Assembly: GCF_019891175.1 (NCBI RefSeq)
Contig: NZ_CP072600.1
Span: 3,286,001 to 3,350,000, forward strand
Length of the DNA stretch: 64,000 bases
Source of the DNA: Leptothermofonsia sichuanensis E412
GTDB lineage: Bacteria; Cyanobacteriota; Cyanobacteriia; Leptolyngbyales; Leptolyngbyaceae
Reading direction: 5' to 3'
Shown: positions 15,061 to 57,455 of the stretch, piece after piece
Layout of the letters: the number at the start of each line of letters is the position of its first letter
Position numbering within the stretch: position 1 is the stretch's first letter
Translations under genes and position numbers: made by a program
Notes under the pieces: generated by a model
Told to the model about the DNA's origin: nothing
The model's input: only the letters and a program-made list of their open reading frames with translations
Database searches by the model: none

Positions 15061-15165
15061 CTAGAGCATCGGTTCAGAATTCCAAGAAATCGGATTTCTG
15101 GTGAGAAATTTAACAAAACCTGGGTAGCCAATAGAAGAAATCCGATTTCTGTACCGGCGTTCTAG
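15061..15165. repeat. 105-bp inverted-repeat element, copy 1 (CTAG ends)
   Basis: It begins CTAGAGCATCGG and ends CGGCGTTCTAG. The inner arms GAAATCGGATTTCT and AGAAATCCGATTTC are inverted copies. The other copies are at 52641-52745 and 56050-56154, all 105 bp and in the same orientation. It has no coding capacity, which suggests a miniature inverted-repeat transposable element. Confidence 0.85.
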
Positions 15166-30997: not shown

Positions 30998-31154
30998 TTT
31001 TTATGACTCTCTATGACCAGAAAAAACTAAGCCGATTCAACCAGCTTGTTGATAGACTTCAACTTCAGGAATTGTAAAACAATATTCCCATTCCCCTGTC
31101 ATTTCACAGATTTTTGCAACAAGTCTTGTAACGAAGAGATTGATTATTATTCTC

Positions 31155-31305
31155 AGACCTCCGATTTCTGGGGTGTCCCGTATCCATTGGCTCAAATTTC
31201 AGGAGAAATCGGAGGTCTTAGGTTATCTATGGCGGCGGGTCAGACCTCCGATTTCTGGGGTGCCCCGCATCCATTGGCTCAAATTCCAGGAGAAATCGGA
31301 GGTCT
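31155..31305. repeat. two tandem 64-bp hairpins (period 87)
   Basis: Copies at 31155-31218 and 31242-31305 each begin AGACCTCCGATTTCT and end AGAAATCGGAGGTCT, a perfect 15-bp stem with a 34-base loop. The loops differ at only three or four positions. They lie 13 bases beyond the stop of the giant GDPD gene, so they could act as its terminator or as an mRNA end stabiliser. Confidence 0.85.
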
Positions 31306-31318
31306 TGGGCTATCGCCG

Positions 31319-52225: not shown

Positions 52226-52525
52226 CTAAACCAGATAGGCTTCCTGGTGGGTGCGGATCGTGCAATCAGAACGAGGATAGGCAACACAAAGCAGCACAAA
52301 TCCTTTGGCAATCTGTTCATCGTCCAGAAAGATTTGTTCGGACTGATCCAACTCACCCTCAACGACTTTGCCAACACAACTGGAACAGGAACCGAAATGG
52401 CAGGAGAAAGGTAAATCTAAGCCCTGTGCTTCAGCCGCTTCCAGAATTGTGGTGGTGTCTTCAACAGGAATTGTGAGATCGATCGCACGTTTTTTGTTGA
52501 TTAGATGGACTTGATAGGTCGCCAT
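52226..52525 (-). CDS. fdxH: 2Fe-2S ferredoxin FdxH (nitrogenase electron donor)
   Basis: It starts at ATG 52525 with GGAG 9 bases before it; 99 residues. A plant-type 2Fe-2S fold with cysteines in [12 protein letters not shown] and LLCVAYP. It carries the FdxH-type start [20 protein letters not shown] and the His/Gln-rich end THQEAYLV. In cyanobacteria FdxH reduces the Fe protein NifH. It follows hesB in the usual order. Confidence 0.93.
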
Positions 52526-52640
52526 GATTGTGTTCTCCAAAATCAGAACCGATTTGCATTTCAAGGCATGAGCAGATTGCAGATAACAAACTAACCACGA
52601 TTCCTGGTAAGGCTATCCCTATAAGGGGCAGGACTCGTTC

Positions 52641-52745
52641 CTGGAGCACCAGTTCAAAATTCCAGGAAATCGGATTTCTGGTGAGAAACTCAACGAAGCC
52701 TGGGTATCTGATAGAAGAAACCCGATTTCTGTACCGACGTTCTAG
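52641..52745. repeat. 105-bp inverted-repeat element, copy 2 (at the hesB stop)
   Basis: The end CGACGTTCTAG contains the hesB stop codon (CTA at 52742-52744 is TAG on the minus strand). The outer end here reads CTGGAGC rather than CTAGAGC. It lies between hesB and fdxH. Confidence 0.85.
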
Positions 52746-53110
52746 CTGCACGGTACCCCTGCCGGTGAACAATCCCCTGCCTTAAAGGATTGCCCGCAAC
52801 CACAGGATTCTGTGGCATTGGGGTTACTGAACTTAAACCCACTTTGGGTTAAGCCTTCAACATAATTAATCAGCACTCCATCCAGTAAAGGTGCGCTCTG
52901 GCGATCGATGTAGACCCTCACTCTTCCTTCCTGCAACACATCATCGGGTTTGGGTTCGCTGGTGATATCCAGGGCGTACTGATAGCCGCTGCAACCGCCA
53001 TCCGTTACCGAAACGCGGACTCCCCGTTGGGTGGGATTTTCACCCTTTGCAGAGCCTTGCAGAAATGTTCGTAACCGCAGTTCAGCAATTTCCGTCAAAA
53101 ATACTGTCAT
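52742..53110 (-). CDS. hesB: HesB, A-type Fe-S carrier
   Basis: An Fe-S cluster scaffold/carrier of the IscA type for nitrogenase assembly. It starts at ATG 53110 with GGAGG 6 bases before it; 122 residues. It has the three conserved cysteines: VTDGGCSGYQY and ESCGCG. The C-terminus is AGVPCS, the usual end of HesB. The stop codon is shared with a 105-bp repeat element that begins right there. Confidence 0.92.
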   Translation of the reverse strand: MTVFLTEIAELRLRTFLQGSAKGENPTQRGVRVSVTDGGCSGYQYALDITSEPKPDDVLQEGRVRVYIDRQSAPLLDGVLINYVEGLTQSGFKFSNPNATESCGCGQSFKAGDCSPAGVPCS

Positions 53111-53264
53111 ACAACCTCCAGTAAGAGTAGGAAAAACTTGAGATCGTGGATGCAATCAACCGAAAAACTCAGGACTTTACCACGGAGGCACAGAGGACAC
53201 AGCGTGATTCCTGTGTTCCCTCCAGGTATTCCGGGCAAGATTTCAGGTGCTGAATCCTTATTCT

Positions 53265-56049: not shown

Positions 56050-56154
56050 CCAGGGCATTGGTTCAGAATCCCAAGAAATCAGATTTCTGGGGAGAAATTC
56101 AACGAAACCTGGGTATCCGGTAGAAGAAATCCGATTTCTGTACCGGCGTTCTAG
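56050..56154. repeat. 105-bp inverted-repeat element, copy 3 (at the nifN stop)
   Basis: The end CGGCGTTCTAG contains the nifN stop codon (CTA at 56151-56153 is TAG on the minus strand). The other end reads CCAGGGCATTGG. It lies between nifN and nifX inside the nif series. Confidence 0.85.
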
Positions 56155-57455
56155 TGCCTGGCATGGTTTTCTTCCTGTTCCAAAAACAAATTCCCCAGGT
56201 CAAACAGCAGTTGCATGACACCGCGATAGCCAGTGGTGCAGCGTTGACCGTTGCCGAGGCGATCAAAGATGGGATAGCCCAGACGATAGAGGGGGCTGTG
56301 CAGACGACGGGCGATCGCTGCGACGTTAGAATTACCAATTAACAAATCAGAACCAGCGGCCAGCCGCTCAAAGTCTTCCAAATCGCCAATGACAACGGTT
56401 TCTACTGGCAGACTTTCCAGCAACGGGGATCGGGTGGTGGTCACGGCAGCCTGAACCTCTGCCCCCATGCTTTGCAGAAAGTGAACTGTTGACCAGAGCA
56501 AGTCGGGTTCCAGTGCCAGGGATACCCGTTTGCGTCCAAAAAAGAAGTGGGTATCCAGCATGGCATCTTGCAGTTGAGTCCGCTGCCGCCGGTACTTATC
56601 GGGCACGGGTAGCCCACTCAGGTCTGCCAGTCCCTCTAAAAAGCTATCCACGGCATCCAGATTACTCAAACTGGGAAAGACCTCATAGGGAATGCCGAAC
56701 CGGGTCTGCAAGACCTCCGCTGCACTTCGCATACTGTCACCCAATGCCAGGGTGTAAACTGAACTGCCAATTTCCCGCAGTTCTGCCAGGCTGGTACCGC
56801 CACTGGTGACCGTGTTATAGGAATCATCTAAATGTCCATCCAGGGAGAGGGACAGATCGGGAACGGCGATCGCGCTCAAGCCAAAGGCTGCCACGATTTC
56901 TTTAATTTCCTGGACATCTCCTGGTGCAAAGGCAGAACTGATCAGAAGCGTGATTTGATCGGGGCGGGTTTCTCCGGGTTGGGGCAACTCCCTGAGAATG
57001 CTTTCAACCGTCGCCGCAAAACCATCCTGTAGCGCACCTTTGAAATCTGGTGTAGAGACAAAGACGATGGGTAAATCATGGAGTTCAGGATGACGTTTAC
57101 GAATAGTTTGCAAAATCCCTGTCATATCATCCCCACGGGTTTCGGTTAATCCCGTGGTGCACAGTCCAATCATCGACGGCTTTGACTTTTCCACTAACGT
57201 CAAAATGGCCTGCTCAACATTTTCTTCACCCCCCAGGATTGTGCTGACTTCGGTCATGGCAGTGGTTGACAGAGGAATGGCCTCCCGAAAGTGGCGGACG
57301 AGCATGACTTTGGCAAAGGCGGTGCAACCCTGGGAGCCATGAAACAGGGGCATGATACCTTTGAGTCCCAGAAATGCCAGGGCAGCACCCAGGGGCTGGC
57401 TCTGCTTGAGGGGATTGACCGCAACGGATTTTCTTGGTGTTGTAATAGTTGCCAT
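56151..57455 (-). CDS. nifN: NifN, FeMo-cofactor scaffold subunit
   Basis: It starts at ATG 57455 with GAGG 8 bases before it, overlapping the nifE stop (TAATG); 434 residues. NifN pairs with NifE to form the scaffold on which FeMo-co is matured. Motifs: NPLKQSQPLGAALAFLGLKG and the P-cluster-type Cys in LFHGSQGCTAF, and GLCTTGLTETRGDDM. The stop codon coincides with the end of a repeat element. Confidence 0.96.
   Translation of the reverse strand: MATITTPRKSVAVNPLKQSQPLGAALAFLGLKGIMPLFHGSQGCTAFAKVMLVRHFREAIPLSTTAMTEVSTILGGEENVEQAILTLVEKSKPSMIGLCTTGLTETRGDDMTGILQTIRKRHPELHDLPIVFVSTPDFKGALQDGFAATVESILRELPQPGETRPDQITLLISSAFAPGDVQEIKEIVAAFGLSAIAVPDLSLSLDGHLDDSYNTVTSGGTSLAELREIGSSVYTLALGDSMRSAAEVLQTRFGIPYEVFPSLSNLDAVDSFLEGLADLSGLPVPDKYRRQRTQLQDAMLDTHFFFGRKRVSLALEPDLLWSTVHFLQSMGAEVQAAVTTTRSPLLESLPVETVVIGDLEDFERLAAGSDLLIGNSNVAAIARRLHSPLYRLGYPIFDRLGNGQRCTTGYRGVMQLLFDLGNLFLEQEENHARH

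What the first reader, a model, noticed from the sequence alone, without database searches (positions are those of the whole stretch)
52641..52745. Same element ends exactly at the TAG stop codon of hesB
The second copy in the nif region is also placed with its CTAG end in the stop codon of a nif gene, in the same strand and phase (the C completes the last codon, then TAG). Two independent cases argue that stop codons offer a harmless target.
Basis: partly seen in the sequence, partly recalled or inferred. Interest (0 to 1): 0.72.

Follow-up and report, generated by a model that had tools for sequence, protein, structure and literature searches.

The report
Tiny transposon parked at stop codons
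A 105-base non-coding jumping element sits exactly at the stop codon of a nitrogen-fixation-cluster gene, and copies of it and its relatives often do the same, because a stop codon spelled CTAG is a landing site where insertion leaves the protein untouched.

Summary
Window 52641-52745 is a 105-bp MITE whose right CTAG end contains the TAG stop of a hesB/iscA-type gene; a second copy (56050-56154) does the same at nifN. Relatives without the element have the same stops, some spelled CTAG, so it landed on native stops. Of 88 near-full-length copies found in this genome, 28 end on a stop codon and none lies inside a called gene; two further sets gave 12 of 68 and 22 of 58. Compared with empty CTAG sites, stop-codon sites are occupied more than other intergenic ones (odds ratio 3.6, p = 3e-14) but not clearly more than sites within 100 bp on a gene's 3' side (1.37, p = 0.12); gene interiors are almost empty (2 of 1,877). 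Stop codons are thus one kind of safe 3'-end site, not shown to be a special target. The terminal repeats match a 1,670-bp IS1182-family insertion sequence in a relative, not the IS630 elements read here. Two in-frame copies elsewhere imply a 4-bp CTAG duplication, which preserves the whole stop codon. A new MITE family of a known kind; the explanation is largely ordinary and well supported.

The parts
52641..52745 (+). 105-bp MITE copy, both flanking CTAG-type tetranucleotides included
   Evidence: consensus from 23 copies
52641..52644 (.). left copy of the target tetranucleotide, CTGG (CTAG with one transition); far side from hesB
52742..52745 (.). right copy of the target tetranucleotide, CTAG, containing the hesB stop codon
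52742..52744 (-). TAG stop codon of the hesB/iscA-type gene (last codons TGC AGC)
   Evidence: TAG stop at the same place in L072, L073 and L075 without the element
52641..52657 (+). left terminal inverted repeat CTGGAGCACCAGTTCAA (consensus CTAGAGCATCGGTTCAG)
52729..52745 (-). right terminal inverted repeat, read inward CTAGAACGTCGGTACAG
52665..52679 (.). inner near-palindrome GGAAATCGGATTTCT
52716..52730 (.). inner near-palindrome AGAAACCCGATTTCT
52742..53110 (-). hesB/iscA-type gene whose stop is the insertion site (start by the home-made gene caller)
56050..56154 (+). second copy, ending on the nifN stop (56151-56153, minus strand); left end CCAG
56151..57455 (-). nifN gene whose stop is the insertion site of the second copy (start by the home-made gene caller)
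15061..15165 (+). third copy in the window, not at a stop codon, 62 bp upstream of an ornithine carbamoyltransferase start

Best explanation
A non-coding MITE of about 105 bp was moved in trans by an IS1182-family (DUF772/DDE) transposase that inserts at CTAG-like sites and duplicates the 4 bp. Shown: many copies, terminal repeats shared with a complete IS1182-family element in a relative, CTAG at both ends of both, native stops at the two nif sites. Strongly inferred: the duplication is 4 bp, so when the site is xxC-TAG the gene keeps an intact stop codon and its protein does not change. Inferred: copies that land inside genes or just upstream of starts are removed by selection, copies at or just after stop codons stay, and that filter on a CTAG-seeking element produces the excess at stop codons.
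For: Copies: 113 non-overlapping hits, 88 near full length. Stops: 28/88, 12/68 and 22/58 copies in three sets; pooled occupancy stop 62/222, 3' side 70/317, 5' side 18/371, far 62/755, in genes 2/1,877. In 29 of 29 gene ends of the window's genome and 12 of 12 of G006 the base across the element makes the original codon TAG or TAA, never Tyr. Stops at the same place without the element: hesB in L072, L073 (identical TGC AGC TAG) and L075; nifN ending H-stop in 6 of 10 relatives. Stop-bearing ends keep TA (28 of 29, plus three genes that run into an element) while the other end of the same copies keeps it in 12 of 27 (p 6e-4). Mobiliser: five 1,670-bp copies in G047 with CTAGAGCATCGGTCCAGAACC at both ends and CTAG on both sides, transposase 344.7 bits to IS1182 model NF033551, cut-off 270. 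4 bp: two G006 copies lie in frame inside genes, net 106-4 = 102 bp = 34 codons, one with kinase/AAA domains before and GAF/HATPase domains after it.
Against: No complete partner transposase was found in the window's own genome, so mobility there is historical and the partner is inferred from relatives; no call shows that the IS1182 enzyme moves this element. Among TA-intact ends of unequal sequence the outer base differs more often than the inner (8 vs 2), which a 2-bp TA duplication would also give. In the window's genome the first 25 bp after stops are little occupied (3 of 34), against a smooth 3' safe zone, although G006 shows 8 of 30. The count of intact stop-bearing ends is partly built in, because a copy is only called 'at a stop' if a stop is still there. 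Insertion preference and later selection cannot be separated with these data.
Confidence: 0.83

Rival explanations
1. The insertion machinery itself prefers gene 3' ends, for example because DNA there is easily melted or because of transcription termination, and the stop-codon excess is mainly a targeting effect.
For: 3'-side CTAG sites are filled about six times more (odds ratio) than 5'-side ones; for the related IS5, a role of stress-destabilised DNA in target choice has been proposed (passages of PMC5493358).
Against: The near-total absence from genes (2/1,877) and the low occupancy before starts are what selection predicts; the stop codon itself is not significantly better than other 3'-side sites. 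The G006 set, with better-kept ends, has a lower stop share (12/68 vs 28/88) but only p 0.064.
Confidence: 0.25
2. The element is useful at 3' ends (terminator, RNA stabiliser or clean stop) and copies there are kept by positive selection.
For: Excess at 3' ends in three sets; inner near-palindromes.
Against: No terminator-like site in 52500-53200; the DNA fold of the hesB copy is not unusual (z -1.22); orientation at stops is mixed (right end to the gene 18, left end 9 in the own genome; 5 and 7 in G006).
Confidence: 0.08
3. It is an IS630/Tc1-type MITE with TA duplication.
For: The genome holds at least 150 DDE_3 (IS630-type) hits, one IS630-type group of which also has CTAG at its ends; target core TA; outer bases vary more than inner ones.
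Against: None of the IS630-type elements whose ends were read carries these terminal repeats (not all 150 were read); an IS1182 element does; the in-frame copies need 4 bp.
Confidence: 0.05
4. Chance: two nif copies at stops mean nothing.
For: CTAG is scarce in coding DNA, so stops are a sizeable share of non-genic CTAG sites (70 of 571).
Against: 28/88 against that share gives p 1.4e-5, with two further sets agreeing.
Confidence: 0.01

Closest known systems
IS1182-family insertion sequences (NCBIfam NF033551; Pfam DUF772 plus DDE)
   Same: terminal repeats CTAGAGCATCGGTNCAGAA and CTAG at both ends in the five G047 copies
   Different: the window element is 105 bp, too short for a transposase; IS1272 of this family was reported to replace inverted repeats instead of duplicating a target (passages of PMC5678879), which is not the pattern here
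IS5 (E. coli)
   Same: 4-bp Py-T-A-Pu duplication, CTAG commonest (15 of 24), then CTAA and TTAG (passages of PMC5493358); a similar spectrum of ends appears here
   Different: the partner transposase is best matched by the IS1182 model, with IS5 models below cut-off; full IS versus MITE
Cyanobacterial MITEs such as Nezha
   Same: short non-coding mobile elements in cyanobacteria (Nezha seen here only as a reference-list entry in passages of PMC10969869; details recalled)
   Different: recalled as linked to another IS type; not compared by sequence here
Small mobile repeats (SMR-A) of Haloquadratum walsbyi
   Same: about 110-bp elements with prominent inverted repeats and no transposase (passages of PMC3119063)
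   Different: those are said to cause no target duplication and to match no transposon ends

Membership tests
MITE | short, no transposase gene, many copies | tested here: met
   105 bp; 113 non-overlapping hits, 88 near full length
MITE | terminal inverted repeats shared with an autonomous element | tested here: met
   partner in relative G047; none complete found in the own genome
MITE | target duplication | tested here: met
   CTAG-type tetranucleotides at both ends; 4 bp implied by two in-frame G006 copies; the pairwise comparison of ends alone is inconclusive
IS1182-derived | partner transposase is of the IS1182 family | tested here: met
   NF033551 344.7 bits, cut-off 270; DUF772 and DDE domains
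IS1182-derived | that transposase acts on this element | not testable with these tools
   needs a transposition assay
IS630/Tc1-derived | TA-only duplication | tested here: not met
   106-2 = 104 bp would shift the frame, but both in-gene copies of the G006 relative are in frame; end comparison leans the other way
IS630/Tc1-derived | terminal repeats match an IS630 element | tested here: not met
   the IS630-type elements read have other ends; not all 150 hits were read
IS200/IS605 or REP-type | no target duplication, no long terminal inverted repeats (recalled definition) | tested here: not met
   inverted repeats and CTAG at both ends; no search for a Y1 transposase was made

The most novel reading that the evidence does not exclude
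The IS1182-type machinery aims at gene 3' ends (stop codon plus about 100 bp) through a DNA or transcription feature, so that a CTAG-seeking element has a built-in safe-harbour preference and spreads as a low-cost 3'-end tag, its 4-bp duplication copying the stop codon.
Probability: 0.18. Interest if true: 0.65.

Novelty: new member of a known kind. Interest (0 to 1): 0.42.

Why it matters
It gives a quantified example, repeated in three sets, of how a transposon with a CTAG-type target persists in compact genomes: a target duplication that contains the stop codon makes the insertion silent at protein level. It also supplies a natural gradient (stop, 3' side, 5' side, gene interior) on which insertion bias and purifying selection could be separated, and it links a cyanobacterial repeat family to an IS1182 partner.

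Tried and rejected
My first hypothesis, an IS630-type MITE with TA duplication, was dropped: the IS630-type elements read have other ends, an IS1182 element has matching ends, and in-frame copies need 4 bp. A loose fuzzy search for terminal repeats was uninformative and its output cut. No Rfam match at gathering score in the window. The fold of the element is not unusual. Terminator scan negative for 52500-53200. The own-genome IS1182-like fragment L397 has no matching terminal repeat within the 3.2 kb fetched. Whether the autonomous IS of G047 also lands on stops could not be judged: three candidate ORFs at its ends have no Pfam match. A PDB search with the Uma2-type protein found nothing. 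A search of papers for pieces of the repeat found none; searches listed no paper that I recognised as describing this family or counting stop-codon insertions of an IS1182 MITE; I saw listings, and passages of five papers.

Rows dropped: six opposite-strand self-matches of the 120 rows before tiling (114 used); of 113 hits, 25 partial ones were not counted; G006: 60 of 67 planned stretches fetched, and the model search there scored only 68 candidates and listed those; third set: 80 loci tabled of 85 stretches reported, one match per locus used, 10 loci without a readable left end and 12 copies near locus ends dropped, 58 counted; these loci share no long stretches (at most 68 common 60-mers per pair). 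Gene calls are from a home-made Markov caller, not a curated annotation. Check after drafting: two of the 28 own copies at stops have a gene-side stop other than TAG (one TAA, one TGA); without them the odds ratio is 3.0, p 7.5e-5.

Full report
What is there. Window 52641-52745 is a 105-bp element that begins CTGG and ends CTAG. Three copies were found in the window: 15061-15165, 52641-52745 and 56050-56154. The window is part of a single 6.43-Mb contig (G000), in which CTAG is scarce (1,212 seen, 2,610 expected from trinucleotides, in the sampled 1.62 Mb). A profile from 23 copies gave 120 matches in the genome, six of them opposite-strand echoes. In the stretches fetched around the matches nhmmer gave 113 non-overlapping hits, 88 near full length. 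Consensus ends are CTAGAGCATCGGTTCAG and, read inward from the other side, CTAGAACGCCGGTACAG. 47 of 88 left and 51 of 88 right ends are still exactly CTAG; CTGG, CCAG, TTAG and CTAA make up most of the rest. In 65 copies of exactly 105 bp the eight end columns vary at 16% on average and the inner columns at a median of 6%, though 11 of 97 inner columns reach 14% or more.

The stop codons are native. The minus-strand hesB/iscA-type gene ends TGC AGC TAG at the element. In L073 (genome G009) the gene has the same final codons TGC AGC TAG and no element; in L072 it ends PAGVPCS-TAG, in L075 TGT AGC TAG, in L074 AGC TAA, each without the element (loci). NifN ends ...H-TAG at the second copy; of ten relatives shown, L249, L253 and L255 end H-TAG and L248, L251 and L254 H-TAA, and four end otherwise (L247, L250, L252, L256), none with an element at that place. 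So both genes most likely had their stop there before the insertion.

Genome-wide test. With home-made gene calls, 28 of 88 copies end exactly on a stop codon and none lies inside a called gene. One copy serves two genes, giving 29 gene ends; the gene-side stop is TAG in 27, TAA in one and TGA in one. In 29 of 29 the base across the element makes the original codon TAG or TAA, never a Tyr codon. Empty CTAG sites in the same stretches: 491 inside genes, 501 intergenic, 70 at stops; odds ratio 3.3, p 1.4e-5, or 3.0, p 7.5e-5 if only TAG-side copies count. A related 106-bp family in G006, with well-kept ends (64 of 68 left and 61 of 68 right CTAG), gives 12 of 68 at stops, odds ratio 3.3, p 0.0027, and two copies inside genes. 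A third set of named genomes (mostly Nodosilinea sp. LEGE 07088 and two cyanobacterial MAGs) gives 22 of 58, odds ratio 4.0, p 9.5e-6, none inside called genes.

What the excess means. Splitting sites by position, pooled occupancy is: stop 62/222 (28%), other sites within 100 bp on the 3' side 70/317 (22%), within 100 bp upstream of a start 18/371 (5%), farther away 62/755 (8%), inside genes 2/1,877 (0.1%). Stratified odds ratios: stop versus all other intergenic 3.58 (p 2.7e-14); stop versus 3' side 1.37 (p 0.12); 3' side versus 5' side 5.95 (p 6e-12). Stop codons are therefore not shown to be a special target beyond being safe 3'-end ground. Occupancy values are inflated because the stretches were chosen around copies; only ratios count. 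Against a smooth safe zone, the first 25 bp after stops are little used in the own genome (3 of 34), though not in G006 (8 of 30).

A trace of selection at the site. Of 29 stop-bearing ends 28 keep TA, and three further genes run into an element (one through CTGG in place of CTAG); the opposite end of the same copies keeps TA in 12 of 27 (Fisher p 6e-4, counting the three as losses). Part of this contrast is built in, because a copy counts as 'at a stop' only while a stop is there.

Mobiliser. The own genome has at least 150 IS630-type hits, but the elements whose ends were read have other ends, and 184 of the genome's 186 matches to the terminal repeat (up to 3 mismatches) fall in the fetched stretches, all but four of them in the copies. 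In G006 one terminal repeat leads into a broken gene with a DUF772 domain and an IS1182-type match. A search of 58 genomes (the own and 57 relatives) with that protein found in G047 five near-identical elements of 1,670 bp, each with CTAGAGCATCGGTCCAGAACC at both ends and CTAG on both sides; the 522-aa reading frame scores 344.7 bits to NCBIfam IS1182 (cut-off 270). The own genome shows no match to the broken protein and only a 33-bit IS1182-like fragment without these repeats. I conclude that the 105-bp element is an IS1182-derived MITE whose partner is no longer visible in this genome.

Duplication length. In G006 two copies lie inside reading frames in the phase CTA-Gxx and keep the frame: net 102 bp if 4 bp are duplicated, 104 if 2 bp. 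One gene has kinase and AAA domains before and GAF and HATPase domains after the insert. Pairs such as TTAG/TTAG, CTAA/CTAA and ATAG/ATAG at the two ends fit 4 bp, while unequal TA-intact pairs lean towards outer-base change (8 vs 2), so 4 bp is favoured, not proved. IS5 duplicates Py-T-A-Pu with CTAG commonest (passages of PMC5493358). With 4 bp, the gene-side copy of CTAG holds the whole stop codon.

Verdict. Observation confirmed; the harmless-target reading is supported, with the limit that 3' ends in general, not stop codons alone, are the safe ground. Selection after CTAG-directed insertion is the best explanation; insertion bias to 3' ends is not excluded.

Noticed in passing
L193:5861-6532 (-) and L242:3980-9892 (-), genome G006: Two copies of the 106-bp relative lie in frame inside genes (Uma2-type and a kinase-AAA-GAF-HATPase protein) and add 34 residues.
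   Followed up: partly
G000:C1 copies at 3301061, 6088705 and 3021128: Several copies abut another repeat beginning TAGTGGTCTGTCAA, similar to the ends of an IS630-type element that also shows CTAG at its ends: nested use of CTAG sites.
   Followed up: partly
ends of copies in G000: CTAG ends often show TA to CA or TG transitions (CCAG, CTGG) and vary more than most inner positions; a possible clue to CTAG scarcity.
   Followed up: partly
G000:C1:1153455-1153559: A gene seems to have lost its TAG at the element (CTGG there) and now runs about 18 codons into it.
   Followed up: no
window 31153-31314: Adjacent pair of a 75-nt repeat (93% identical) whose ends, GACCTCCGATTTCT and AGAAATCGGAGGTC, are inverted.
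   Followed up: no
G000 genome: At least 150 DDE_3 (IS630-type) transposase hits, many with identical scores.
   Followed up: no
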